DNA of 64,000 nt from positions 24,408,299 to 24,472,298 of the forward strand of contig NC_089314.1 of the NCBI RefSeq assembly GCF_036669915.1. The letters are read 5' to 3'. How positions within the stretch are numbered: position 1 is the stretch's first letter; every line of letters begins with the position of its first letter. This DNA is from Pocillopora verrucosa. Its lineage: Eukaryota; Cnidaria; Anthozoa; Scleractinia; Pocilloporidae. The position numbers and the translations under genes were made by a program. This document shows, piece by piece, positions 48,713 to 64,000 of the stretch. The notes beneath the pieces are model-generated. The model was not told the origin of the DNA, made no database searches, and saw only the letters and a program-made list of their open reading frames with translations.

Positions 48713-50713
48713 ATGGAAAAAAGCGACACGGACTCTTCCACAAAAAAACGCAGGTCACACCACAAGAAATGCAAGTGTCCTTCCTGTAGTAAAGAAGTGT
48801 TTGACCTCAAACGTCATCTGCGCATGCATGTAAAAAATGAAGACATCGACGAAGTAGATGTTGACAAATCTTTCAGCATTGCTGTCAACACAACCAAACG
48901 TCGAGGTCCCCGAAGACCAGGGAACAGAAAAGGTCTACCACTGAAATGGTGCCCGGTGGAAGATTGTTCCTATGTGACAGCACATTTACGAAAACATCTG
49001 ATGAACAACCACCGCGTAAAAGCTGGCACATATTTTGACAACCTACTGAAAGAGGCTCGACTCTATAAGGGGAAGGAGGAAGTTGACAATTTGCCTCTAG
49101 TAAAGCAAGAGCCAGAAACAAGGTCTCTGCAACAACAACAACCAGTGGACAAAGAGCCAGAAGTGTCAGTGGAAGAAGTAAAGGAAGATCAAGAGGAACC
49201 CTCTTCATACTTGGAAGACGAAGATTATGAAGAAGATCAACTTCAAGAGCAGTACTTCACCTCGGCAAATCCCAAGACCACTCGACACAAGTGGCTAGTG
49301 TTGTTTTATCAATGGTTGAATACGGCTGATGCTGGCCGAAAGAAAGATTGTAATCGGCTTCAACATGCCTCACACATCCGTCTGATGCTTGAAGACCTAC
49401 AGCCTGGTGGGGACGGGATAGATGTCCTATCTGCAGACGAGGGCCAAATAGTGTGGACAGACTGGGTAGATGTGAAGTTGTTGTTGTTGAAGTCTGGGAC
49501 CATCAATGGATACTTAGGAACTTACGAGAAGTTTCTTCAGTTCGTTGTAGAAGATCGAGTGCGTGTAACCGAATATCCTCCAGTCGACCCGGAGGTAAGG
49601 AGGATCTTCATGAATACAATCCCTAAGCTCAAAGGCTGGAGGCGAACAGTCGATTTAGAGGGTAGGGCTGAAACCAATCAACGTCGAATGGACGAATGTA
49701 CATACCGTCTTACCACTGACGATGTGAAGGCATTTCTCTCCTCCCCTATTTGTGTGAATGCCAGGAAGATCTTTGACAAGGCGAACGACAAATACATGTT
49801 GACAGTTAACAAAATGTGTGAGGCGAGGGACTATCTGATAACTATGATAAGCTTGAAGACAGGTACCCGTCCTGGGGCGTTGGAGAATCTGAAACTGCAA
49901 GAGTACTCCCAAGCCAAAGCAGACCCCAACACCAGTCACAAAGTGCTGTTGGTGCCTCAACACAAAAGGCAAAGTGATGGTCCAGCTCCTTTGGCCATCG
50001 ACAAGGAGTTGGAAGGTCTCTTTAACATCTTCCTCTGCGAAATCTATCATCAGTTTCCAGCTCCTAGAGGTCCTACCATTTTTCTTCGAAACGATGGAAC
50101 CTCGTTTCAGTTTGGAACCATCTCAAAACGTCTACCAGAATTCTGGCGGAAGAGTAACATACGCCCAGATATTAGGGTAACAGCTACAAACATCCGGAAA
50201 TGGATTGTGACAGCTTGCAACATGAAGAAGAAAGAAGGTTATCTCAGGGAGGACCTGACCACTGTGGCAGCATCTGCCATGGACATTATCTCGAGTTGCA
50301 CCTTGGCAGTTGAAAACCCAACCACCACAGCCAAAACCACAGACAACAGTGAACAGTCAGTCATGTCTGAGAAAGGAGAAGCACATGACCCTAACACTGA
50401 CTCATGTGAGGTCGTCAGTCCCCCATCAGCAGAAGAAAGGACTTCGCAAGAACCACCCGTGAACAGTCAACAGCCAATGATGTCTGACAAAGGAGACACA
50501 CGTGACCCTAACATTAACTCATGTGGGGTCGTCAGCCCTCCATCAGCAGAAAAAGGGACTTCGCAAGAACCACCGGTGAACAGTCAACAGTCAATGATGT
50601 CTGACAAAGGAGAAACACATGACCCTAACACTGACTCAAGTGAGGTCGTCAGTCCCCCATCAGCAAAAGAAGGGACTGAAAAAAGCACCACTAGGGAAGA
50701 AATTGTCAGTTAA
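48713..50713 (+). CDS. Crypton-like tyrosine recombinase with two C2H2 fingers, copy 2 (catalytic His lost)
   Basis: It would encode a site-specific DNA recombinase of a Crypton-type transposon. Two C2H2 fingers lie near residues 20-42 (CPSC...LKRHLRMH) and 82-105 (CPVEDC...LRKHLMNNH). An acidic region (YEEDQLQEQYF) and a helical DNA-binding core follow, then the tyrosine recombinase domain: R386 (TGTRPGALENL), Lys in PQHKRQSDGPAPL, R495 (NIRKWI) and Y510 (GYLREDL). Compared with copy 1, 18 residues are missing between R495 and Y510, including the CHS motif with the catalytic His, so catalysis is unlikely. The tail holds three 39-residue repeats. The frame is open for 666 codons even though the N-terminal part is frameshifted off. 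Confidence 0.85.
   Translation: MEKSDTDSSTKKRRSHHKKCKCPSCSKEVFDLKRHLRMHVKNEDIDEVDVDKSFSIAVNTTKRRGPRRPGNRKGLPLKWCPVEDCSYVTAHLRKHLMNNHRVKAGTYFDNLLKEARLYKGKEEVDNLPLVKQEPETRSLQQQQPVDKEPEVSVEEVKEDQEEPSSYLEDEDYEEDQLQEQYFTSANPKTTRHKWLVLFYQWLNTADAGRKKDCNRLQHASHIRLMLEDLQPGGDGIDVLSADEGQIVWTDWVDVKLLLLKSGTINGYLGTYEKFLQFVVEDRVRVTEYPPVDPEVRRIFMNTIPKLKGWRRTVDLEGRAETNQRRMDECTYRLTTDDVKAFLSSPICVNARKIFDKANDKYMLTVNKMCEARDYLITMISLKTGTRPGALENLKLQEYSQAKADPNTSHKVLLVPQHKRQSDGPAPLAIDKELEGLFNIFLCEIYHQFPAPRGPTIFLRNDGTSFQFGTISKRLPEFWRKSNIRPDIRVTATNIRKWIVTACNMKKKEGYLREDLTTVAASAMDIISSCTLAVENPTTTAKTTDNSEQSVMSEKGEAHDPNTDSCEVVSPPSAEERTSQEPPVNSQQPMMSDKGDTRDPNINSCGVVSPPSAEKGTSQEPPVNSQQSMMSDKGETHDPNTDSSEVVSPPSAKEGTEKSTTREEIVS
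50350..50690 (+). repeat. 117-bp tandem repeat inside recombinase copy 2, three units
   Basis: ATGTCTGA starts recur at 50363, 50480 and 50597, exactly 117 bases apart, keeping frame (39 residues: MSDKGETHDPNTDS...VVSPPSA...EPPVNSQQ). Copy 1 has no such repeat, so it is a recent private expansion. Confidence 0.9.
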
Positions 50714-51190: not shown

Positions 51191-51435
51191 AATTTTTCAA
51201 AGTGGACCGGATTCTTTAGTATTTGTATTCTTCTAGTATTAGTATTTTCTGAAATTTTGTGCTTTTTCGTCCTCTGCCTTCCACACAGTACAGAAGAGCA
51301 GTGCGTGTGTTGGTCAGTTCTGAGAGTGGCAGAGGCGAAAGTGAAAAACGAGTCATTGAAGTCCTTTAGTGTCTTGCTTTTAATTTTGTGATGTTGTGAC
51401 GTGTAATACTTTCCTCTGGACTCTGCTAGTACTGT

Positions 51436-51508
51436 GTAAGCAATTTGTCAGGGATAAAACATGAGCCGGGGTACCCAACCCCCGGGGATTGCCCCACAAA
51501 TTGCTTAC
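51436..51508 (+). other. conserved hairpin downstream of recombinase copy 2
   Basis: GTAAGCAATTTGT (51436-51448) pairs perfectly with ACAAATTGCTTAC (51496-51508) around a 47-base G/C-rich core that opens CAGGGATAAAACA and closes GGGGATTGCCCC. The same structure with a different stem sequence and the same core length lies 3' of copy 1 (63326-63398). Candidate roles are recombination end, RNA 3' processing signal or structured RNA. Confidence 0.8.
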
Positions 51509-51539: not shown

Positions 51540-51605
51540 CCTCCAGACTTCTTTCTTATCGACCACGTCACCTGATGAAGACTTGCAGAAAAAAATCGAC
51601 CTCAT
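51540..51605 (+). repeat. two-unit tandem repeat
   Basis: ATCGACCACGTCACCTGATG AAGACTTGCAG is followed by ATCGACCTCATCGCCTAATG AAGACTAGCAA about 40 bases on. Confidence 0.6.
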
Positions 51606-51647
51606 CGCCTAATGAAGACTAGCAAAGCACCTCCTCTCACAGTAGTC

Positions 51648-51770: not shown

Positions 51771-52601
51771 ACCCAAAATCGTGGGGTTTTAGTATTTTTC
51801 CATAGTCTTAAAATTTTAATTGCTATTGAAAAAATTATAATAAATTTGTCAGTCCATCCTTCTGACCTCATACTCGGCAGTTAAAAGTAAATTGTCACGT
51901 TCTCGTCGTTGCAATTATAAAAATTTACAATTTTTTGCTGAGTCAGCATAATTCGAAAAACGTGTTTTTGACGGCTGTCAATCAAATTGACAGGCATCAC
52001 TGAGGTAATATAATATACCATAACGTAGAAATCGTCATAGTCTATCACAGTGCTAAGTTTCAGCTTGCTGGCTTCTATTGTGAATTAATTACAATTTTTT
52101 AACTACCCTTATTAGAATACATTTGAGTGAAAACAACATGCAGTCCCCTTTATTATTACTCCATTTTATTTCTTTATTATAATTTACCTTATTACATGAA
52201 ATTTTCGCGACATGTTAATTTCGCGATTTGGAGAGTCGCATATTTCGCGACACCTTATTTTCGCGATTTTGCGAAAATTTTGCATTTTGACTCACTTTAA
52301 TTTCGCGTTTTTGAGTGAGACAATTTATTTCTTTGTCAATGTTATTTTACATGTCCTTGAAAATTTGATCAAACAACTTAATCCACAATGTCCAAATAAA
52401 CAGAAACGCAGCTGATTATGTAAACAGTAACAAGAAAGATGTTCTCACAGCGTCTAGAAGGCACGGTATGTACCTGCCCATGCTTGAATGCAAGTCACGT
52501 TATTACTGGTCAATTGACCTTAATATCCATTACATTAAATATTCCTTTCTGCTAACTCCGAGGAAAAAAATGTTGCCATTTAGTTGCACGACTGATGCCG
52601 T

Positions 52602-53891
52602 TTAATCGTTTGCGTAAATGTCTTGATACGGATCAACAGGGGGTAGCACTTCTTTTCCATTTAAAACATCCTTTATTCCGGCTTTTTCCCATCCTTTCAA
52701 AACATAAACCTTTCCCTCAGTGCTGGTGAAAAAGTTATACAACTCTACCAACCAAGTGGCATGGATTGGTTTAAGGACCGATAGTTTGAGATCAACATCG
52801 ACATCTTCAAAATTGATTCCACTATCCACTTGTTTGTGGACTTCTGCGGAATACCACGTCGCAAACTTGTTCTTGCAAAACTTCTTGGCCTGTCCATTGA
52901 CCATTAGATCCAAGGGTTGAAAAAAATGTGTCATGTTAGCTGGGACAGAAATGACTTCTATATTCAGCGAGGAGAGCTTCGAGCAAACCTTTTGCGTTTT
53001 CTGACCTCTGAAGACATCCCAGATAAGAAGCGCCTTTTGAGATCGTGGAAGGCCAAGTTCCTTGCGTTTCTTTACCATGTAGGGATTGATTACAGAATCT
53101 ATAAGGCCTATTGTTTCTGCCTCGTTTGAATAGTGCTTTGGGTTTTGGCTGACACAAAAGCTCTTGGGAAAACTAAAGTTCCGAGGAAGGCTAGCCTTAG
53201 TTTTACCCTGGTATATAATTTGCAACGGGAGAAATTCGCCAGACAAAGAAATCACAAATGTTAGAGTGATGTTACGCTCATCTGTCAAACCCTTGATTGG
53301 TACAGACTGAGAGTTTGTTGCTGCCATGGTCATTCGACCCACTGATACGTAAGAACTCAGTGTTTGATCAGCATTAAGAATAAGTTCTGGTGGAATATTG
53401 TGTTGCTTGATGCAATTGTCAATGTCCGACAGGTAAGTGAGCTTGCATTCGTCGTAAACTCCTCTTGGAACTGGTGGCTTGGTTGTTGTGCCTGCACGCC
53501 GGGAAAAGTTGCAATGCTTGTAAATAGATTGAGTCCATCCTCGTGTGGGTGTAAATGAGAGGTACTTGTCACGCATTGACAGATTGCTGCTAATCAGTGC
53601 TTTCGCAGCAGCTGAAGCGACGCTGCCGTTCACTACACCACCTCTGGACCTGAGGTTTTTTAAGAATGCGATCAGTTTGCTGTCCAGCTCGAGAAGGAAC
53701 GGTGGTCGCCCACGTTTCTGCGTTTCAAGGGCCGTAACCAGTTGAACGTTTCCTTGTCTTGCTTGTGCAGAAAGTTCCTCTCGAAATGCCTTTTTAAAGG
53801 CACGCACTGTGCTTTCTTTTAAGCCTGGAAATTCTTTAATAAAGCGTTCTAGGGTTTTTTTTGTTTCCATTTTCACTTGCGAACTTCCCAA
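52602..53891 (-). CDS. DDE transposase (pogo/Tc1-mariner-like), 429 aa open frame
   Basis: It is the cut-and-paste transposase of the surrounding element. A helix-turn-helix N-terminal region (KRGRPPFLLELDSKLIAFLK) precedes a DDE_1-type core with NADQT (D175), LLIWDVFRG (D292) and THFFQPLDLMVNG (D328); 35 residues separate the last two Asp (DD35D). The open frame begins with GSSQVKMETKK, which does not look like a natural start. The real N-terminus (LSREEPSPEDSVEVE... GEDRAKIGKFASENG) is in the neighbouring frame at 53836-54162 and meets this one at an A8 run (plus-strand T8 at 53855-53862). It may therefore be a one-base frameshift mutation or a slippage site. Confidence 0.88.
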   Translation of the reverse strand: MGSSQVKMETKKTLERFIKEFPGLKESTVRAFKKAFREELSAQARQGNVQLVTALETQKRGRPPFLLELDSKLIAFLKNLRSRGGVVNGSVASAAAKALISSNLSMRDKYLSFTPTRGWTQSIYKHCNFSRRAGTTTKPPVPRGVYDECKLTYLSDIDNCIKQHNIPPELILNADQTLSSYVSVGRMTMAATNSQSVPIKGLTDERNITLTFVISLSGEFLPLQIIYQGKTKASLPRNFSFPKSFCVSQNPKHYSNEAETIGLIDSVINPYMVKKRKELGLPRSQKALLIWDVFRGQKTQKVCSKLSSLNIEVISVPANMTHFFQPLDLMVNGQAKKFCKNKFATWYSAEVHKQVDSGINFEDVDVDLKLSVLKPIHATWLVELYNFFTSTEGKVYVLKGWEKAGIKDVLNGKEVLPPVDPYQDIYAND

Positions 53892-54162
53892 TTTTTGCGC
53901 GATCCTCGCCGCTGTATTGAAAATATTTTCCCCTTTTTCTCTTAGGATGTTGATTTGGTTGCAAAATCTCGGCGGGTCTTGAAAGGTTTACAAATGCGGC
54001 TGCGGTTTCCCTGTGTTCAACCACTCCTAAATTTGTATCCTCCTGCCTCGGTATATGTGATTCAAGTATTTCTACCTCCACCGAATCTTCAGGCGAAGGT
54101 TCTTCTCTACTGAGAGAGAAGCCGAACTGAAACAAAGACATGTAATGGTAGTAGACGAACAC
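53836..54162 (-). pseudogene. N-terminal part of the DDE transposase in another frame
   Basis: The acidic N-terminal stretch (EDSVEVEILESHIPRQED) and KRKRGKYFQYSGEDRAKIGK lead into ENGNKK, overlapping the main transposase at ETKKTLERF. Both frames share the A8 run, which explains the split. A possible acceptor (TTGTTTCAG) lies near the left boundary, so a further upstream exon is possible. Confidence 0.65.
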
Positions 54163-54411
54163 TCATGTGTAATTTCTACAGAAAACACGTGTAGTTGTAG
54201 AATACTGTAAATGCACATTGATTTCACGTGGTCGGCAGGGATATGTGATCGTCAGCTGTCAAAAAACCGGAAATACCTTAGATGTTTAAACCTTGAACCC
54301 TGCTAGAGTAAGACACTTTGATTTTGGTGATGGCTTCAGTTTCTGGTACTCTCCAATATTCCTTTCCCTGCGGCCTGAGAGGCTTTCACGTTTATAAAGA
54401 GATTTGGAAAC

Positions 54412-55731
54412 CTAAGGTTGGAGACGTTCTTTCCTGCATCCATGTCTTAACCTTACAGTTCCATCAGCAAGTTTCTCTAGAAAAAAAGTTTTATTTTGGC
54501 AGGCTTCTTCGATAGTCATGCCTGCTTTGCTTAAAGGAGATTTAATTTCCATCCCCCATTTTTCGTGAGTATCCTTAATGGTTACAATCCTGTCTATGCT
54601 TGCCCCCAGGTATGGCTTGTCCTTGGACACCAGTAGCCCAATTTCCTCAAAAGTAACATCAATGCCATTCTTTTCCATTTCCCTCATGTAAAGGGTCACT
54701 GCCTTTGCTTCACTTTCGATGCCATATTGAGTAGCATCTGTAGTAAAATTCGAGTAGAGGATTGATTTCAACTTATTTGAAGGTTCCACTTTGTTCTTAG
54801 CTGCTTTTCCAAAGTTTGAAGCTGTCAAAAGAGATTTCCTCTTTTCAAACCAAAGATTGTTTTTGTTTTTGTTTTGTCCTTGAAATGTTCTCTCCGTTTC
54901 ATCTATCTCTTCTTGAGTGATTGTTAAGCTGGAAACATAGGAATCAACCATAGATTTAAAGCGCTTAGTAGCAATATCGTAACTGTCTGTAAAAGGCACA
55001 GACTCTGGTGCCTCGTTTGTCTCTTCAGGGTCTGACTCCTCTACACAGTTTGACTTGATGTCATGGAACAAAAAAAATGAACTGGCAGGGAGACAATTTT
55101 GGAGACTTTCACTTAAAATCTTGAAACTGTTTTCCTCTCTTGTTCGTTGATTGGGTGATCTTGGATCAAATTTTATAACCTTCGACTGAAGACGAATATT
55201 TTTCTTACCAAATCGTATCTTTCTGATTAGTACTTGGTCGAGAGGTTTAGCTGCAACGCTTTGGTTGCGGGGTACAACCCACACAGACAGCCGCGATGTG
55301 CATGACAAAGGCTCGGCATGCCTTTGTAATCCCCTTCTCGTAAAATCTTCAATCGCAAACAACACTCCTCCAACGTGGTTACATTTACCTTTTCCGGATA
55401 AACCAAGTCCAGCCGGACACGTGCATGCCGCTCGCAAAATATCGCTCTGTGGTGAAAGCTCCACAACAACTCTGTAGGGATTTTTTTTCATTGATGGAAC
55501 TACACTGGCTTTCACGTAGGTCTGACCTTGAAAGACTTTGCTTTCCAGCCGTTTCACAGTTCCTTCAAAGAAAAATTGGTATGATTTTAACTTTTTGTAA
55601 TGTGTGCCCTTCAACAAAATATGGCGGTACTTGCGTGTTGACACCACAAGGTAATCGTAGAGCTGAATGAAGTTCAGTTCTGGAAGCTGTCGCAAGTCTG
55701 TTGACCATCCAAGAGCAGAGATTCGTCTCAT
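54412..55731 (-). CDS. SWIM zinc-finger protein with YqaJ-type (lambda exonuclease-like) nuclease, 439 aa, C-terminus truncated
   Basis: The N-terminal half carries a SWIM finger, C103-x-C105 ... C117-x-H119 (ACTCPAGLGLSGKGKCNHV). The C-terminal half has YqaJ/PD-(D/E)xK features: RKSLLTASNFGKAAK, ESEAKAVTLYMREMEK, then GASIDRIV (D380) and WGMEIKSP (E395, K397), which form the D-x14-ExK nuclease centre. The usual end of YqaJ proteins after RLRHG (the Gln/Tyr helix that lines the active site) is missing, so the copy is probably shortened or has a further exon. It lies in the same orientation as, and upstream of, the DDE transposase within shared inverted repeats. Its role in transposition is inferred; DNA end resection or processing is plausible. 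Confidence 0.82.
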   Translation of the reverse strand: MRRISALGWSTDLRQLPELNFIQLYDYLVVSTRKYRHILLKGTHYKKLKSYQFFFEGTVKRLESKVFQGQTYVKASVVPSMKKNPYRVVVELSPQSDILRAACTCPAGLGLSGKGKCNHVGGVLFAIEDFTRRGLQRHAEPLSCTSRLSVWVVPRNQSVAAKPLDQVLIRKIRFGKKNIRLQSKVIKFDPRSPNQRTREENSFKILSESLQNCLPASSFFLFHDIKSNCVEESDPEETNEAPESVPFTDSYDIATKRFKSMVDSYVSSLTITQEEIDETERTFQGQNKNKNNLWFEKRKSLLTASNFGKAAKNKVEPSNKLKSILYSNFTTDATQYGIESEAKAVTLYMREMEKNGIDVTFEEIGLLVSKDKPYLGASIDRIVTIKDTHEKWGMEIKSPLSKAGMTIEEACQNKTFFLEKLADGTVRLRHGCRKERLQP

Positions 55732-56394
55732 TGTTTCGTCATATTTGAAATGGCCACTGTTTTCACCACAGTTTTCAGCAGTTTGCTGGGTATTATCGAC
55801 CGACCACGTCTGTCATAAGCAATGCATACACTTTCAGAACCAGGTCCGCCTTCATTCAGGTCCGCCTTCATTCAGCCGGCATTTTCGGAATTGCTCTTCA
55901 AAATATTCCTCAGATCTTTGATTGTGAGCCTCTGTATATCCTCCAGCGTCAAAATTTCCTTGTCTTTATATTATAAAACCATTTTTTTTAGCGAAGATAT
56001 AACAAACGATGCGAAACAGGTTAGTGAAACAGCTGTGATTTTGCTATGTTTGTATTTCCCGGGTCAACGTTAGCCTCGACATGATGTTTGCGCGGTTACT
56101 ATTCCAAGATGGCGCCGGGAACTGTAAAAAGGCCTATTGGCGAAAGCGAGTCCATTTCGGAAGAACAGCACCCTCACCACTGAGCTACCAGTGCAGGCCA
56201 AGCAAATTCGTGTAAATTTAAGTAGTCTATTCTTTTTTTACCACCATGTTGGATGTAGTTTAAAAAATCATATTTTATTCAACTTAAATGCTAGTAAGCT
56301 GATACTTAACACGTTAATAGAACAAAACCTGTTCCACATTTTCACATATTGAATCTCCTTAGTCACACCTGTCAATTCGATTGACAGCTGTTAG
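55732..56394. other. 5' side of the SWIM/YqaJ gene to element right end
   Basis: Presumed promoter side of the element. At 56135-56205 (minus strand) TAGCTCAGTGGTGAGGGTGC looks like a tRNA-type A-box without a B-box, perhaps a SINE remnant. No ORF is supported. Confidence 0.4.
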
Positions 56395-56524
56395 GGTTAT
56401 ATTTAGTGACCCAAAGTGTTATATTAACTCCTTTTTTTACAAACTGGATACTCAAAGATTATTAGATTATAGATTATAGATTCGCAGCCAGGATAAGACA
56501 TCTTAAAAACTAGAATTAAAACGT

Positions 56525-56641
56525 TCTCTGGCTAAAAATCTAAAGAATATCACCTTTCGGCTGTCGCTCTACATCCTTTGACATGTAAATTCTGCAGAGT
56601 GACAGCCAAAAGCTGATATTCTTTACATTTTTAGCCAGAGA
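56525..56641. repeat. 117-bp foldback MITE
   Basis: The left arm starts TCTCTGGCTAAAAATCTAAA and the right arm ends TTTACATTTTTAGCCAGAGA. Arms of about 45 bases pair with few mismatches around a short loop. No ORF. Confidence 0.8.
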
Positions 56642-57059
56642 TCGAGTTTCTAATACAAACAGAATGTAGGTAAGGGTGCGTTTCTTTCATTTTCTCATAC
56701 AAAGTCTTATAATTTGACTTGATAGTAGTCAGGCATGATTATAAAAATCAAAATAAATTCAGGTTTTAACTTGACGACTTGATATTTGATGTGTTTATAG
56801 CATTATAATAGCCCTATGCACTGCACTTTTCAAAAAGCATGATTAGTCACTGACTCCACAAATATTAGACAAGAACTATTTTAAAAAAACTGGTCAATTT
56901 GCAATTTTTAACTTATTTTGACTAACAAAAAAATTGAAATATTCATTAAAAATATTTCAAGTGTCAATACTTGAAGACCAATCATAGGACATATATCACC
57001 TAAAATTTCAATTCATTCCACCTAGTTTAACAGCTTCCAAGATACCATTATAAAACTTG
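56642..57059. other. AT-rich spacer
   Basis: Nothing recognisable: no ORF, no repeat match seen within the window. Confidence 0.5.
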
Positions 57060-57070
57060 TATTTTTTTAT

Positions 57071-57219
57071 GTGGGCACCCTCGACCACCAATGTGGGCAT
57101 ATTTCACCATGTGGGGAGGTTCGACCTTTGACGTGGGCTTCTTCGACCTTCAATGTGGGCAGATTCGACTCTTTGTGTGGGCGGGTTCAACCTTCGTGTG
57201 GGGAGGTTCGACCAGGAAA
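57071..57219 (+). repeat. ~21-bp tandem array, inner word TTCGACC
   Basis: Units start at 57071, 57093, 57111, 57133, 57154, 57175 and 57197 (spacing 18-22, mostly 21-22). The consensus is GTGGGCAGRTTCGACCTTNAAT. The head GTGGGC matches the arrays at 34944 and 63822, but the inner word differs. Confidence 0.85.
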
Positions 57220-57225
57220 CTAACC

Positions 57226-57258
57226 CTAACCCTAAACCCTAAACCCTAACCCTAAATA
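57226..57258 (+). repeat. telomere-like CCCTAA/CCCTAAA run
   Basis: Five units of ACCCTAA and ACCCTAAA follow directly after the 21-bp array. It is interstitial and too short to be a telomere. Confidence 0.8.
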
Positions 57259-59357
57259 GGTTCCCAGAAGTGTTCTCCTGCCCAAAATCTTCCCTAGACA
57301 ACATAAATTTTTTTCCTAGCAATATTAAGGGTTTTCCTTCTAACTATAGAATGTTTGGTTCTCATCCAACGTTCTGTGTAAGTTTTAGAAGATATGGTTA
57401 AAAGTCTTTTAAGTTATAGTCCTTCAAAGTTTGAAATGAGGGCAGGTCAACAAGATCGGGAGAATCTATGAAGAAAGCGTTATTTTGTCACCAAATTTTG
57501 CCTGCAAAGGTTTTAAACAAGATAAACAATCACCACAGATTACCTTTGGCTAACCCTGGCCAATTAAAAATCTCCAAACTTTGCTCGGGAAAAAATGACG
57601 GCCAGGTATACGCTCTACACATCACCTTGTAAGACTGGTCGAAGAAATTTGGACTATAAGGTAAGGTGATTATCCATGAAAATTATATCTCTCTGTAAAT
57701 GCGAGGGTTAGAGTTGAAATTTACACAGGAAGTAACTATGTAAATTTTGTGTTATCACCGTAAGTTTCATGTTATTTCCACGCGGGAAACTCTTTTTAGA
57801 GTTGCTTTTGTACGGAGGACACTTTTCCAAATATTGTGGGGGCAAAGCTATTCCACATTTTCTGCTTAAGCAGTCGTTTTCTGCAAACATTCTTTAAAAG
57901 TTTTTACATTATTAGAAAGCTCTTTGCATGGGCTTTACATTGGCATTTCTTTAACTCCTAACCCTTGCATTGTTTTGAAGAAATTCTCTGATAAAGAAAG
58001 TAAATGGGGGCAAGAAAGCACTTTTTAGGTTGTCATGTAAAAAAATCATATAAAATCGATATTTTAATATAACATCATTATATCCTGATACAATAAAGAC
58101 AAATAGTAGGAGCAGCTTTTCAGAGGTTTTTGAGTTCTTTAATGGAACAGTCACAGAGATATAGAGGTCTAAATCATGCACAAGTTCAAAGTGCCAGTTT
58201 TGTCATTTTAAGGACATGGTTGACTTAATGAGACCACAACTACCCTTTAACCTTAGTGAAATACAATGAAACTCTATTGAAGTATTATCATATAATGGGA
58301 CTTTAACTTACTTATAATTCGTGATATTCCATCAAGCGTAAAGAAAGATATAGAGACTTCAAGCTCCTTTAATGGAACTCAAATACATTTGCATATTATG
58401 GTCAACTTTAAGAGGCCAAAACTATTCTTCTGCTTTATCAATCTCAACGAAACTTTAACATAAGATGGTACATAAATAGAAATTAAATATACTTGAAATT
58501 TATGTAACTCCAATAAATCTACAAGAAAATATTTAAATTTGAAGATACCATCATGATTTGCATAACATAGTCACTTTTCGTGCATCTGACACGAGGTCAC
58601 CATTTCCACAAGCCTTCGACTGGTAAGTCATGCTTTTTGATGCTTCGTTATTCTTCTTGTTTAGCACCCTTAGAACACTAGGCAGAAGCAATCAAACTAT
58701 TGAAAGAGATGTCTAAGGTGGTCGGGCAGCTTTCTTGAACATTTTCTTGCAATGGAAAACAGTTGCTTCTTCGTAGGCTTTGGTCAAAGTTTAAGGGTGC
58801 ACTCTTGACCATGATGTTGTTGAAGGACCTCGTCACTAGGGCTTGAGGACCTCTTTTTTATATTTTGATGTGATATTATGCTTGTTTATGATGAAAGGAA
58901 CCGTTTGGTGTTACTTGTTTTGAAATCAGTCCCTTTGTTCATTAACTATGACGTCATTTGGTCGGAAACTTTACAACTTAACAACTTTGCAAAGTCTCAG
59001 GCATTTGGCCACTTTAGTATTGATATTTGTTGGCTGGAGGAAGACCTACATGCATGCCACAATTTGTCGCAAACGATAAAATCCTTGCGGAGTTATTAAC
59101 GTTTAAACTTTCTTACAAAATGGCGGACGCAGTTTTTTGGTACCAAGTCCCCTCGGCGCGCGCGCGAAAGTGAGGGTAGACTTTAACTGCATATATCTTC
59201 TAGAGGATATTAAATTTGAATGTGAAATTTACAGGGGTTGTACTATGGCCCACGAGCTACTCTCTCATGTAATAATATTTCATTTTTAACTGGATAGTGG
59301 ATTCTTGAACTTGCATCCGTGGACGATATCATTCAAGCTAGTTTGTATTTATGAAAA

Positions 59358-61010
59358 ATGTCTGCAAAAGGCATTGAAGAAGTTAAGCGTTTGGCCATGA
59401 AAGGACTATCGGGGGATGAAGAGGCCATTAAAGAGCTGGGCCTAGAAAAAGTTCCAGAAGTTACAATCCCAGATTTCAAGGAGATTGACCGTTTCACGGT
59501 TGACAAAATTAAGAATGTGGCAGCCATCTCATTTGTAGTTGGGAAGAAAGTGGGCATTCCCTTACTAGAGGCATCGGCCAAAAACCTGTATGAATTAGTC
59601 AAATTTGTCGAGAAAGACAAACTAAAGACAAATACGAAGCCAGAAATGGATCGCAGTGATGTAGTTAGAAGAATGAGCTACTACTGCAAAGACATTGCAG
59701 CATGGTCGAGGAAAATTGGGGAGGTGGAGGGCGGAAAAGTGCTCCACAAACTTGAATGGTTTTCACAGAGTCTAACTCATTTAGAGATAGGAAACAAGGA
59801 GTCACTTCGGCTTATTGGTCTTAAGAGAATGCCAGCGGTAACAATTGCGCTGATAAAGAAAGTTCCTAACTCAATGACACTCCAATGCTATTATAAGAGG
59901 GCCCATTTGATTGCCTCAACGGCAGAGTATATGGGAAATACCACTCTTCGAATTGTATCACAATTCATGATGGCCATGTGTGATGTGATTGCAAGATCGC
60001 ATCACCCAGAAGAACCAGAGCTCTCGGCAGACACCGACGGCCAAGACGTTTGCGAGACACTAAACGCTGAGATAGAAGACATCATGAGATGGGTAGAGCA
60101 CTTAGCGGAACTAAGAAAGAAGGAAAGGGCTGATAAGGAAGAGGAAGATGACAGTGACCCAGCATATAGTCCAGAATCTTCAGGGGAGGAGAGCGAGGAA
60201 GAAAGTGAAACCAAGGGGGAAAGTGAAAGTGACAGTAAGCAAAGAAGGAAAAAGATGCAGAGGAGAGAAGCAATGGAGATAGACAGCCCAAAACCATCAT
60301 CAGCGGCTTCAGAGGAAAAACCAAAATATCTAGCATATAGAGGACCCTTAGACCTAACCAAGGATACCTTGTTTGCAGATTATCGGGAGGCTGCAAACTG
60401 CTATCTCTCTGCTGCTGAACTAGGTCTAGACTCTGTTGTGAGCAGCAGCACGTTGGCATTAAAATACATCTCTTATGTGGCCAAGACGCAGTTTGATATC
60501 GACCTTTCCAAAAAGCATGACATAAATGCCATAAAACGCACAGAAGTAGAAGACATGATGAATAACATGAGAGATGAATGTACTAAAGAAGGCGCCAAAA
60601 CCAACAAATGTAACGAAACCACCTCTGCTGCTGATGGCGCAAAAAGCTCCAAGGCTAGCCAAAAAGCCTCTAAAGAAGTCACTCCCCGAAAATTCAGTCT
60701 TGCAATTAAACCCCCTACCAAGGATGAAGATGAGGAATCGATATCATCGAGAGATGACGTGGAAAAAGAAGTTCGAGAGGAAGATGAGAAAAGAAGTCAC
60801 CACTCCAAGGTGAGATGCAGAATCCCTGGATGTGGAATGATGGCAGGCGACATCAAGCGTCATCTTAAAGTGCATGTTGGTAAACAGATCGAGGAGGAAG
60901 GCTACAAGGGGGCCAAGACAGGTGAGGGGGAAGAAGGAAGTGGAAACTCCGGGGAGATTACGAAAATGGTGCCTGGTAGACGGCTGCAACACAATCACCA
61001 GCTATCTTAA
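59358..61010 (+). CDS. Crypton-like recombinase element copy 1: N-terminal ORF (550 aa)
   Basis: It starts MSAKGIEEVKRLAMKGLSG. The first ~230 residues have a helical, non-repetitive region I do not recognise, then an acidic stretch (EEEDDSDPAYSPESSGEESE), a second helical region (ANCYLSAAELGLDSVVSSST) and a C2H2 finger (CRIPGCGMMAGDIKRHLKVH). The last ~45 codons are out of frame relative to copy 2: the second finger continues in the frame of the next ORF, which overlaps by 137 bases. I infer that both ORFs belong to one protein broken by a frameshift after the first finger (60880-60905), or joined by frameshifting or a short intron. Copy 2 has both fingers in one frame, which supports a single protein. 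Confidence 0.75.
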   Translation: MSAKGIEEVKRLAMKGLSGDEEAIKELGLEKVPEVTIPDFKEIDRFTVDKIKNVAAISFVVGKKVGIPLLEASAKNLYELVKFVEKDKLKTNTKPEMDRSDVVRRMSYYCKDIAAWSRKIGEVEGGKVLHKLEWFSQSLTHLEIGNKESLRLIGLKRMPAVTIALIKKVPNSMTLQCYYKRAHLIASTAEYMGNTTLRIVSQFMMAMCDVIARSHHPEEPELSADTDGQDVCETLNAEIEDIMRWVEHLAELRKKERADKEEEDDSDPAYSPESSGEESEEESETKGESESDSKQRRKKMQRREAMEIDSPKPSSAASEEKPKYLAYRGPLDLTKDTLFADYREAANCYLSAAELGLDSVVSSSTLALKYISYVAKTQFDIDLSKKHDINAIKRTEVEDMMNNMRDECTKEGAKTNKCNETTSAADGAKSSKASQKASKEVTPRKFSLAIKPPTKDEDEESISSRDDVEKEVREEDEKRSHHSKVRCRIPGCGMMAGDIKRHLKVHVGKQIEEEGYKGAKTGEGEEGSGNSGEITKMVPGRRLQHNHQLS

Positions 61011-62751
61011 TCAGCATCTGGTAAAGGCACACAGGTTAAAGAGCTCCCATACCCAGTATAGGGTCCATCTCAAGGAGGCTAAAAGGTATACTGGTATCCA
61101 AGAGTTAGACTGCCTGCTCACTCTACCATCCAAGGCACCGTCATCCAAGCTGACATCTCCGTCATTCTTAACTGCTCAACCTAATCCACGTGAACACAAA
61201 ACCAACGAAGATGAAGAAATAGAAGAGACCCAAGGAATAGAAGAGACCCAAGAACAAGAACAAGAAGAAGAAGAAGAAGAAGAATGGCATCCAGAGGGAG
61301 AGGTGGAGGAGAGTGACGAAGATTCTGAAGATGCTCCAACCATAAAGATCAGGAAGGAGGAGTATTACTCAGCGACAAAATTTACGAGTTACCGCCACCA
61401 ATGGCTCTCTGGTTTCTTTAAGTACCTGAAGAGCCCATCAGCGGGCTACAAAAAGCTTGAGAATAGACTCCAGCACGTGGGCCAGGTGGAGAAGCTCTTG
61501 GAAACGCTGGACCCCAACGGTAAGGACATCACCATCCTAGGGGAGGAATTTGGAGGTATCGTATGGAACAAATGGGTCAGCCCACACCTTTCTGAGGGAA
61601 CGAAGGCACCAGGTACGTTGGCCTCCTATTTGACCAGTCTGGAAAAGTTTTTCGTTTTCGTCATGTCCGACAAGTACAAAAGAAAGGAAATGCCGCTGCT
61701 GCATGGCAACGATTTTGACGTGTTTAAGGGGACCATCAACGCCCTGAAAGGCTGGCGTGCAACTATCGATAACGAAACCCAGGATGTTCAGCACCGGACC
61801 CATCTCAGAGAGTGCGATACTCTCTTGACGGAAACAGACATCAACCTTCTCTCTCAATCAAAACCCTACATAGATGGTATGAAGGCCATAACTCAGGCCA
61901 AGGCAGGAAAAAGGCTCTCCATACAACAATTTACAAATGCTCGCGATCTTCTTCTGGTAAAACTCGCGCTACTTGTGGCATCTCGACCTGCCCCGCTAGA
62001 GAATGCTCTTCTTGAAGACTACCAAAAAGCGCAGGAGAAGGACGGAAACAGGGTCATGTTAATCCCGAAGCATAAACGATCTAGAGAGGGACCAGCACCA
62101 CTTGGCATGGATAAAGAGCTGCAAGATCTCATGGAGGTCTATGTCAATAAGATCAGACCACACTTTGTTGCAAAAGATGTCAAACACCTCTTCGTTAAGA
62201 GTGACGGCCAATCATTCAACAGAAATACCATTGGAAAAAGATTCTCTGCTTTCTTTGAGAAAAGTGGCGTGAGGACCGACAGACGCGTAAGCCAGACTGC
62301 TGTAAGAAAGTTTGTAACAACGGCAGCGAGAAGGCATGCCCCAGAGGAGATGTCGAATATCCAGAGGGTCTTGTGCCATAGCGAAAGGTCATCTCGCAAC
62401 AGTTATCTTAGGTTGGACTTGACAGAGACGGCCTCACACGCCATGAATATCATAAAGAAAGTCACCTCCAGTGAAACAGAAACTAAAACAAAGAAAGAAA
62501 CTCTTGCTGAAGAACTTCCCGAGAAACAAATAAAGAAAGGTGGTGAGGAGAGTGACCAAAGTGCAGACGTTGATCTTCCTGGGCCAAGCCAACTAGCGTC
62601 TGAAGATGACAAAACCTTCACAAATGTTATCCCACCAACAGTCTCCCCTGGCAAGGTTTCAAGTCTGACAGAAAAACAGAAAGAAGCCATTAGGGAAATC
62701 TTTTCATCTGCCATTGAGAGAGGGGAGAAACAACAAATGAAGGCTGTGTGA
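60874..62751 (+). CDS. Crypton-like tyrosine recombinase, copy 1, catalytic ORF (625 aa)
   Basis: It has a second C2H2 finger (CLVDGCNTITSYLNQHLVKAH), an acidic coiled segment (EETQGIEETQEQEQEEEEEE), a core-binding region (FTSYRHQWLSGFFKYLKS, WNKWVSPHLSEGTKAPGTLA) and a tyrosine recombinase domain with R371 (LVASRPAPLENA), K401 (PKHKRSREGPAPL), R478 (TAVRKFVTT), H502 (VLCHSERSS) and Y511 (NSYLR). The H-to-Y spacing of nine residues is that of active tyrosine recombinases, so the catalytic set looks complete; Thr replaces the first His of the HxxR box, a substitution I cannot evaluate here. The natural start is probably in the upstream ORF. Absence of reverse transcriptase separates it from DIRS elements and favours Crypton. 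Confidence 0.82.
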   Translation: MLVNRSRRKATRGPRQVRGKKEVETPGRLRKWCLVDGCNTITSYLNQHLVKAHRLKSSHTQYRVHLKEAKRYTGIQELDCLLTLPSKAPSSKLTSPSFLTAQPNPREHKTNEDEEIEETQGIEETQEQEQEEEEEEEWHPEGEVEESDEDSEDAPTIKIRKEEYYSATKFTSYRHQWLSGFFKYLKSPSAGYKKLENRLQHVGQVEKLLETLDPNGKDITILGEEFGGIVWNKWVSPHLSEGTKAPGTLASYLTSLEKFFVFVMSDKYKRKEMPLLHGNDFDVFKGTINALKGWRATIDNETQDVQHRTHLRECDTLLTETDINLLSQSKPYIDGMKAITQAKAGKRLSIQQFTNARDLLLVKLALLVASRPAPLENALLEDYQKAQEKDGNRVMLIPKHKRSREGPAPLGMDKELQDLMEVYVNKIRPHFVAKDVKHLFVKSDGQSFNRNTIGKRFSAFFEKSGVRTDRRVSQTAVRKFVTTAARRHAPEEMSNIQRVLCHSERSSRNSYLRLDLTETASHAMNIIKKVTSSETETKTKKETLAEELPEKQIKKGGEESDQSADVDLPGPSQLASEDDKTFTNVIPPTVSPGKVSSLTEKQKEAIREIFSSAIERGEKQQMKAV

Positions 62752-62757
62752 AATTAA

Positions 62758-63069
62758 ATGTCGACCACACTAATCTTAAGGAAAATGACTACTTCTATCT
62801 CAAAGGTAAAACAGGTAACCAACTTCGTCAACTACCTAGTGAGCAAACGACTCTTTGAGGTGGAAGGTTTGCCAACCCAAGCAATTGAAGTTGAAGAATG
62901 GCTTGATGACCAATCATCATCACTAAAATCTGATCAACGGATGCACTGGGATCAACGAGATTCACAAGCGATGGAAAGAGAGTTCCGTAGGTTTCGAAAA
63001 TGTCCACCTAAACAACAACTAAGGCAGATGTTCACGGTGAATGCACGCCTAGCTGCAATCTGTAAATGA
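62758..63069 (+). CDS. small C-terminal ORF of recombinase copy 1 (103 aa)
   Basis: It lies in the same frame as the catalytic ORF, separated by two stop codons. Helical, with KVKQVTNFVNYLVSKRLFEV and REFRRFRKCPPKQQLRQMF; the same region is traceable in copy 2 after its own stops (51026-51085). It may be a separate small protein of the element or a tail cut off by a nonsense change. No known domain recognised. Confidence 0.5.
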   Translation: MSTTLILRKMTTSISKVKQVTNFVNYLVSKRLFEVEGLPTQAIEVEEWLDDQSSSLKSDQRMHWDQRDSQAMEREFRRFRKCPPKQQLRQMFTVNARLAAICK

Positions 63070-63070
63070 A

Positions 63071-63265
63071 GTGTTGCTTCCGTTCCTTTTACTAAGTTAG
63101 TTCAAGCCGTTGCGTGTCTTTGTTCATGTTGCTTCCGTTCCTGTTACTAAGTTAATTCAAGCCATTGCATGTCTGTAAATAAGTCTGTTCATATTGATTC
63201 CGTTCCTATTACTAAGTAAGCTCAAGACGTTGCATTCCTGTAAATAAGTTCGTTCATGTTTCTTT
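63071..63265 (+). repeat. tandem repeat, 55-65-bp units, three copies
   Basis: GTTGCTTCCGTTCCTTTTAC TAAGTTAGTTCAAGCC... recurs at 63073, 63128 and, as ATTGATTCCGTTCC, 63194. A truncated fourth start follows near 63251. It lies between the recombinase gene and the conserved hairpin. Confidence 0.8.
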
Positions 63266-63325
63266 GTCAGACGTTCTCCTGGCAACAATGAGTTGGGCTG
63301 GTTACCCGATGATACCCTCTGGTAT

Positions 63326-63398
63326 TGTGAGAGTTTGTCAGGGATCAAACACAAGCTGGGGTAGCCAATCCCTGGGGAGTGCCCCACAAACTTTCACA
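63326..63398 (+). other. conserved hairpin downstream of recombinase copy 1
   Basis: TGTGAGAGTTTGT (63326-63338) pairs with ACAAACTTTCACA (63386-63398) with one G-T wobble. The 47-base core opens CAGGGATCAAACACAAGC and closes CTGGGGAGTGCCCC. Core length and most core bases equal those at 51449-51495, while seven stem positions changed on both sides. An internal CAGGGAT/ATCCCTG pairing is possible in this copy. Confidence 0.8.
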
Positions 63399-63821
63399 GT
63401 CCCAGGTAATACTCTTGTCGTTTGAAACGGCAAGAGGGGGACCAGGAAACCACTTATCACAACAGTACAACCCAGTCCTCGTGTTATGACTATGGCCAAA
63501 CTTATAAGCGTGCTTACTATGTTAAACTTCATTCAAATAAACTGAAATTTACCGCTCCAGCAGATTGATCCATTGTTAAACAGTGTGCTAGATTTCAAAG
63601 ATACACCATGAAGGGTTCCAAAGTTACAGTGGTCCTTATGACTGGACCTCCCATTACTTGATCATGTTGCCAGTCAATCTGAAACAAAAAGATTAAAGTT
63701 GTCCAATCCAGTTAATAAATTCTCCCTCTAAAAGTACACGTCAAACACAATAACTCCTGCAACTTTCAGCAAATTCGCCCATAATAAAAGAAACCTAAGA
63801 CAAAAAATCCCTCGATCTGAA
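63399..63821. other. 3' flank of recombinase copy 1
   Basis: No ORF. AATAAA-like words occur at 63536 and 63714. Nothing else is recognised before the last array. Confidence 0.4.
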
Positions 63822-64000
63822 GTGGGCAAGACAACACAGAGGGCCAGACAACAACAGGTGAGGGCAGGACAACACCCTATGTGGGCAAGACAACAACGTG
63901 TGAGGGCAAGACAACATTCGGACAACACACAAATGGGGGCAAGACAACCCCAGAGGGCAAGACAACATTTTTGTGGGGGGAAGACAACACACAATGGGGG
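63822..64000 (+). repeat. ~21-bp tandem array, inner word AAGACAACA (runs off the window)
   Basis: The unit consensus is GTGGGCAAGACAACAACGTG. At least eight units are seen, with 18-22-base spacing and a few indels. The head matches the other two arrays; the inner word is private. The array continues beyond the right edge. Confidence 0.85.

What the first reader, a model, noticed from the sequence alone, without database searches (positions are those of the whole stretch)
51436..51508. Covarying hairpin shared by both recombinase elements
Both tyrosine-recombinase copies end with the same 73-base arrangement: 13-base arm, 47-base core, 13-base arm (51436-51508 and 63326-63398). The cores are largely identical (TTTGTCAGGGAT at the left edge, TGCCCCACAAA at the right edge). 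In the stem, seven of 13 pairs differ between the copies, yet all keep pairing (one becomes G-T). Such compensatory change is expected when structure is selected. For a recombinase-mobilised element it could be the cleaved end, as a folded or inverted-repeat recombinase site; alternatively it is a structured RNA 3' end. I know of no described Crypton with such a terminal structure.
Basis: partly seen in the sequence, partly recalled or inferred. Interest (0 to 1): 0.88.

Follow-up and report, generated by a model that had tools for sequence, protein, structure and literature searches.

The report
Cloverleaf RNA in coral recombinase elements
Two very different jumping-gene-like elements of a coral carry, behind their recombinase gene, the same small folded structure, whose stem changed letters while staying paired; it looks like an undescribed RNA structure rather than the place where the element is cut.

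Summary
At 51436-51508 and 63326-63398, 7 of 13 stem pairs differ, all 7 on both sides, and all still pair; 0 of 200,000 simulations with equally many random stem changes kept all 13 pairs. The two recombinases are only about 33% identical, and the hairpin is the only strong same-strand DNA similarity between the elements.

The window lies in a 353-Mb coral genome. I found 11 copies in four unrelated contexts. In three of them the hairpin (P2) is the central arm of a ~176-nt module with a closing stem P0 and hairpins P1 and P3; the C4 copy folds as this cloverleaf (z -5.2). P0, P1 and P3 hold 31 G-U and no A-C cells, which points to RNA of the recombinase-sense strand; P2 is balanced (20 to 19). 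An automatic consensus fold of the module kept P1 and P3 but not P0 and P2.

The hairpin is not the element's end: a second copy of element 2 stays homologous for 602 more bases. Best reading: a cis-acting 3'-UTR RNA structure, not in Rfam; function is inferred. A DNA recombination site is unlikely; an independent small RNA or a self-maintaining inverted repeat are live rivals.

The parts
51436..51508 (+). element 1 hairpin (P2): 13-bp stem, 47-nt core
63326..63398 (+). element 2 hairpin (P2)
63277..63452 (+). conserved ~176-nt structured module of element 2
   Evidence: 9 other places in the genome by DNA search; homology between contexts stops at its edges
63277..63282 (+). P0 closing stem, 5' arm (3' arm 63442-63447)
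   Evidence: not chosen by the consensus fold
63292..63310 (+). P1 hairpin (arms 63292-63297 and 63305-63310)
63412..63436 (+). P3 hairpin (arms 63412-63421 and 63427-63436)
51396..51403 (+). possible closing stem of element 1, pairs with 51564-51571 (8 bp); weak, one sequence only
48713..50713 (+). tyrosine-recombinase ORF of element 1 (lacks the stretch that holds the HS box in its relatives)
59358..61010 (+). N-terminal ORF of element 2, other frame; no Pfam match
60874..62751 (+). tyrosine-recombinase ORF of element 2
   Evidence: Pfam PF00589 at E 0.00017, below its curated cut-off; family profile matches XerA, E 0.0058
57253..64000 (+). element 2; left end 57253, right end beyond the window
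   Evidence: 98.0-99.6% identity to C2:8933831-8940732
57110..57256 (+). 22-bp minisatellite plus telomere-like repeat, taken as the right end of element 1 abutting element 2
   Evidence: inference
63536..63541 (+). AATAAA behind the module
51839..51844 (+). AATAAA behind the element 1 hairpin

Best explanation
The hairpin is the central arm (P2) of a structured RNA module in the 3' untranslated region of two divergent Crypton-like tyrosine-recombinase elements. In element 2, its second copy and the C4 copy the module can form a cloverleaf: P0 closes a junction that carries P1, P2 and P3. Shown by sequence: conserved module limits, compensatory change in the stems, no common open reading frame, position behind the recombinase frame and before an AATAAA. 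Inferred: that it folds in the sense transcript and works in cis, most likely by binding a protein that stabilises, localises or controls translation of the recombinase mRNA. It is not the cleaved end of the element.
For: P2: 9 of 22 pairs with a double change over 10 sequences (8 in the outer stem), 0 of 500 shuffles as high, slid registers far lower. P0, P1 and P3: 96-97% of cells pair; double changes in P0 (1 of 6 pairs) and P1 (2 of 6), none of 10 in P3 by the count, where one P3 pair is T-A, T-G or C-G; with C4's P3 fitted by hand one P3 pair goes from C-G to T-A. G-U 31 to A-C 0 in P0, P1 and P3, on 10 pair columns. The C4 copy folds as the full cloverleaf, z -5.16; element 2 z -3.68; element 1 region z -3.73. 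Homology between contexts is confined to the module. The C2 copy's recombinase frame ends at 8939741 and the module starts at 8940009; AATAAA at 63536. Element 2's module has a stop in each of the six frames.
Against: No transcript data. P2 alone has 20 G-U and 19 A-C cells; all 19 are in the six copies of the C3 cluster and C1, whose lower P2 pairs poorly (67.6% in all). For the whole cloverleaf two of five measures do not beat shuffling (62 and 201 of 500). The consensus fold of the full module replaced both P0 and the outer P2 stem by other pairings: the left P2 arm can pair with the inner CACAAGCT instead, 7 of 7 pairs in 5 of 9 module copies, 6 of 7 in 3, but 5 of 7 in C4 and in element 1, so P2 is favoured by the two most divergent contexts and a switch is possible. 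The consensus fold of the hairpin alone does choose P2. The 2720 copy folds no better than shuffles (z -1.03). Only four independent contexts exist; C4 has no recombinase within 9.7 kb upstream; element 1 lacks clear P1 and P3.
Confidence: 0.47

Rival explanations
1. An independent small structured RNA gene or short mobile unit that recombinase elements picked up.
For: C4:27648953 has the lowest z of the copies folded (-5.16) and no recombinase by tblastn or profile within 9.7 kb upstream and 4.1 kb downstream; the module has sharp limits.
Against: Low copy number: 8 exact-pattern places, 11 copies found in all; 6 of 11 have recombinase sequence nearby, in these 6 the module lies downstream and in the same orientation; no Rfam match at gathering score.
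Confidence: 0.21
2. A long inverted repeat kept paired by mutation itself (template switching or arm-to-arm conversion), without function.
For: The stem pairs that differ between elements 1 and 2 all differ on both sides (7 of 7), as single template-switch events would give; such events are reported to create and maintain RNA hairpins (PMC8794818, title and start of abstract seen in the listing).
Against: It does not explain why the 47-nt core is more conserved than the stem (8 of 47 against 14 of 26 sites changed), nor G-U without A-C in three further stems, nor the conserved neighbouring sequence.
Confidence: 0.14
3. A DNA site for the recombinase: the cleaved end, a folded single-stranded site, or an accessory binding site.
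For: 13-bp arms match the 11-13-bp inverted repeats of recombinase sites (PMC3212892, passage); arms would co-vary with a diverging recombinase.
Against: At least 602 bases of element 2 lie beyond it; the spacer is 47 bases instead of 6-8; the arms vary while the core is conserved; G-U bias in P0, P1 and P3. An internal accessory site is not excluded.
Confidence: 0.1
4. Coding sequence or an ordinary unrelated repeat.
For: A Pocillopora damicornis hypothetical protein (P0102) matches a translation of the C4 module.
Against: Element 2's module has stops in all six frames and copies differ by 1-2-base indels; low copy number; place behind recombinases in 6 of 11 copies.
Confidence: 0.03

Closest known systems
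Cryptons of animals (CryptonA), as described in PMC3212892
   Same: Recombinase without reverse transcriptase in the element; low copy number here; reported from cnidarians
   Different: That paper reports no terminal repeats and no C-terminal domain in animal Cryptons (passages); here the proteins carry a zinc-finger-like N-terminal part, a C-terminal extension and a structured 3' module
Integron attC and other folded recombinase sites (recalled)
   Same: Hairpin near a tyrosine recombinase
   Different: Internal position, conserved core with variable arms, G-U bias in neighbouring stems
omega-RNA of TnpB/Fanzor transposons (recalled)
   Same: Structured RNA at the 3' side of a mobile element's gene
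   Different: No TnpB/Fanzor match in Pfam for the five window proteins scanned
Hammerhead and other ribozymes of retroelements (recalled)
   Same: Structured RNA carried by mobile elements
   Different: No ribozyme family matches either module region at permissive E-values

Membership tests
Crypton | Tyrosine-recombinase domain with catalytic residues | tested here: met
   PF00589 in 4 of 14 family members, best E 1.7e-8; XerA by profile, E 0.0058; over 29 proteins R357 and K401 invariant, R478 and H502 in at least 90%. The catalytic Tyr is seen by eye in element 2 but is not among the 90% columns; the His that usually precedes the second Arg (recalled) is not kept
Crypton | No reverse transcriptase in the element | tested here: met
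   ORFs of at least 120 aa within 57253-64000 are the N-terminal ORF, the recombinase and one antisense ORF; the first two have no RT domain, the antisense one was not scanned
Crypton | Short direct repeats at both ends, no terminal inverted repeats | tested here: inconclusive
   Left end seen; right end of element 2 withheld
Crypton | Groups with Cryptons in a recombinase tree | not tested
   No named reference set was used
Folded or inverted-repeat recombinase end | Lies at the element's boundary | tested here: not met
   Homology runs at least 602 bases past the hairpin
Structured RNA | Compensatory change in stems | tested here: met
   for P2, P0, P1; few independent lineages, and prefers other pairings for P0 and P2
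Structured RNA | Transcribed and folded | not testable with these tools
   no transcript data
Known Rfam family | Match to a covariance model | tested here: not met
   (element 2 region: only sub-threshold matches, DLEU2_6 E 0.17 and eiav_FSE E 0.88)

The most novel reading that the evidence does not exclude
The module is an RNA that takes part in transposition itself: a transcript-borne cloverleaf, perhaps a switch between the two pairings of the left P2 arm, that the recombinase or its zinc-finger-like part binds, so that a DNA-only tyrosine-recombinase element depends on its own RNA for target choice, circle handling or timing.
Probability: 0.06. Interest if true: 0.92.

Novelty: new variant of a known kind. 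Interest (0 to 1): 0.6.

Why it matters
Animal Cryptons are little studied, and PMC3212892 found no terminal repeats in them (passage). A conserved RNA structure that is kept while two thirds of the recombinase residues differ would be a new functional part of these elements, a handle for finding them, and a testable hint that RNA matters to DNA-only recombinase elements. It also matches no family of Rfam 15.

Tried and rejected
Rfam, at gathering and permissive thresholds: no family. DNA cleaved-end reading: contradicted by the C2 copy. Coding sequence: rejected. A pseudoknot between the P1/P2 junction and the P2 apex pairs 53 of 60 cells, but 2669 of 5000 shuffles do as well: not supported. 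Loop-loop pairing P1 with P2: 6 of 6 pairs in 5 of 9 copies (1.4% of random loop pairs offer such a match), broken in 4 of 9 including C4: undecided. Apical helix of P2: broken at one pair in 5 of 10 copies. Hairpin behind more distant recombinases: 10 loci of 2 kb were fetched; 7 are free of masked letters and show nothing comparable, 3 (L040, L042, L046) are 60-86% masked (best match 16.1 bits against 81-97 for ten true copies, the truncated 2693 copy scoring 29.1). For the long-frame families 2 kb may not reach far past the stop. One pattern match in a bacterial MAG, 18.1 bits: taken as chance, not followed. A marginal 18.4-bit match at L004:519-600 was not followed. Viral contigs and phages: no match. 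Row d2693 is truncated on the left and was left out of alignments A5 and A6; element 1 was left out of A6; the 2769 copy was left out of P3, and C4's P3 was cut to the 8 pairs that fit.

Full report
OBSERVATION. The two 73-base stretches are where the finding says and have the described layout. Between the two copies 7 of 13 stem pairs differ, 7 of 7 by change on both sides, and all pair. 14 of 26 stem sites but 8 of 47 core sites differ. Random placement of 14 changes never kept all 13 pairs in 200,000 trials. The recombinase ORFs match each other at about 33% amino-acid identity by tblastn; at the DNA level the only strong same-strand match between the two element regions is 51426-51500 against 63319-63390, 80%.

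SOURCE. The window is C3:24408299-24472298 of a 353-Mb, 52-contig genome. Named protein matches include two Pocillopora damicornis entries at 98% (55% of the query) and 99% (23% of the query) identity, so it is taken to be a Pocillopora-type coral; this is inference.

COPIES. DNA searches with the element 1 hairpin, the element 2 module, the element 1 3' region and the C4 module and an exact core pattern (8 places; reversed control pattern 0) give 11 copies: element 1; element 2; C2:8940009; C4:27648953; C1:158939; and C3 at 2681677, 2693850 (partial), 2720605, 2738617, 2766073, 2769464. The C3 cluster and C1 are segmental or tandem duplicates of one another (C1 and the 2720 copy are 97.8% identical over 7.4 kb), so there are four unrelated contexts. 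The counts are lower bounds. By tblastn and by a profile of 29 family proteins, 6 of 11 copies have recombinase sequence close by, upstream and in the same orientation (element 1, element 2, C2, and decayed pieces at 2681, 2693 and 2738); 5 of 11 have none within the 7.4-10.8 kb examined upstream. Four of these five share flanks with the recombinase-bearing cluster copies. C4 is alone; ORFs upstream of it resemble death-effector-domain proteins (recognised by eye, not searched).

THE MODULE. Between contexts, homology ends at the edges of a ~176-nt stretch: C2 (element 2 type) against cluster copies from -65 to +113 at most, C4 against C2 from -80 to +125 relative to the core. In element 2 this is 63277-63452. 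Its minimum-energy fold has a closing stem P0, hairpins P1 and P3, and P2, the reported hairpin. C4 folds the same way, with a longer P2, z -5.16. Element 1 has P2 and a possible 8-bp closing stem in a similar place, but no clear P1 or P3.

COVARIATION. On 10 hairpin sequences, 85.0% of 220 cells pair, 9 of 22 pairs have a double change (8 of them in the 13-bp outer stem), and 0 of 500 shuffles reach any of the five measures; slid registers give 35-62% paired. C4's lower stem is out of register in that alignment. An alternative inner fold scores alike (85.4% of 219 cells), so the inner part is not resolved. On the 9-sequence module, 89.3% of 298 cells pair; covariation score, paired percentage and double-change cells exceed nearly all shuffles (0, 1 and 2 of 500), but the number of double-change pairs (62 of 500) and of pair types (201 of 500) do not. 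P0, P1 and P3 hold 31 G-U and 0 A-C cells (6 other mismatches) on 10 pair columns; P2 holds 20 G-U and 19 A-C, all 19 in the six cluster and C1 copies. Over one representative of each context it is 12 G-U to 3 A-C. RNAalifold on the hairpin alone keeps the inner 7 pairs of the outer P2 stem. On the whole module it keeps P1 and P3 but replaces P0 and the outer P2 stem: the left P2 arm pairs with the inner CACAAGCT instead. That helix has 7 of 7 pairs in 5 of 9 module copies and 6 of 7 in 3, but 5 of 7 in C4 and in element 1, the two most divergent contexts, where P2 is complete. The 2720 copy as a whole folds no better than shuffles. So P1, P3 and, by elements 1, 2 and C4, the P2 stem are well supported, P0 fairly, the interior not, and a switch between two pairings of the left P2 arm is possible.

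POSITION. The C2 copy of element 2 has an open frame of 1002 aa, running to 8939741; the module begins at 8940009. AATAAA follows at 63536 in element 2 and 51839 in element 1. Homology of element 2 and C2 starts at 57253 and runs to the last base of the window, so the hairpin is internal; the next stretch is withheld. Directly left of 57253 lie a 22-bp minisatellite and a telomere-like repeat that resemble the 21-bp minisatellite of element 2's right part; I infer that element 1 ends there and the two elements abut head to tail, element 1 being interrupted by another transposon (inverted repeats 51971-52106 and 56255-56391).

SPECIFICITY. Of 10 more distant recombinase loci fetched (2 kb each), 7 are unmasked and the hairpin model finds nothing comparable in them; 3 are mostly masked. 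Rfam has no match. Viral contigs and phages have none.

MECHANISM. The best-supported reading is a structured RNA in the 3' UTR of the recombinase transcript that acts in cis. Structure and strand rest on sequence comparison; transcription, protein binding and effect are inference. A DNA recombination end is contradicted by the internal position. Template switching can produce two-sided stem changes (PMC8794818, title and abstract start seen) but does not explain the conserved core. The solitary C4 copy keeps an independent small RNA possible.

PRINT. In the listings for Crypton with hairpin, coral, cnidaria, RNA structure and Pocillopora no title or abstract start mentions such a structure; a search for covariation with transposon terms returned no paper. 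I saw passages of PMC3212892 and PMC4157794 and read no paper in whole. The library lacks most subscription papers; Repbase was not available.

Noticed in passing
57110-57256 and 57253: Elements 1 and 2 seem to abut head to tail; element 2 starts directly behind a minisatellite and telomere-like (AACCCTA)n repeat that looks like the right end of element 1.
   Followed up: partly
63326-63398, cols 78-84 with 97-103 of A6: The left P2 arm has a second possible partner, the inner CACAAGCT, paired 7 of 7 in 5 of 9 module copies: a possible switch.
   Followed up: partly
48713-50713: Element 1's recombinase lacks the segment holding the HS box that the close relative P0003 keeps, so this copy is probably inactive.
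   Followed up: partly
51590-51624: Short stretch shared 94% with 5 other genome places; around these lie CTGATGA...GAAAC motifs like hammerhead ribozymes of Penelope-like elements (recalled); Rfam gave no hit in the window here.
   Followed up: partly
51971-56391: Nested transposon with ~136-bp inverted repeats; a YqaJ ORF and a DDE_1 ORF lie inside.
   Followed up: no
50345-50695: Three 117-nt in-frame tandem repeats in the element 1 recombinase C-terminal part.
   Followed up: no
63066-63250: Three 65-nt repeats between the element 2 coding region and the module; the C2 copy is longer here.
   Followed up: no
L017 / L024 9640-9860: Solitary, best-folding module copy at C4:27648953, ~2 kb behind an ORF resembling death-effector-domain proteins.
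   Followed up: partly
56522-56644: 52-nt inverted repeat with 19-nt spacer, MITE-like.
   Followed up: no
L022/L023 and L006/L007: C1 around 153-160 kb and C3 around 2.72 Mb share 7.4 kb at 97.8% identity.
   Followed up: no
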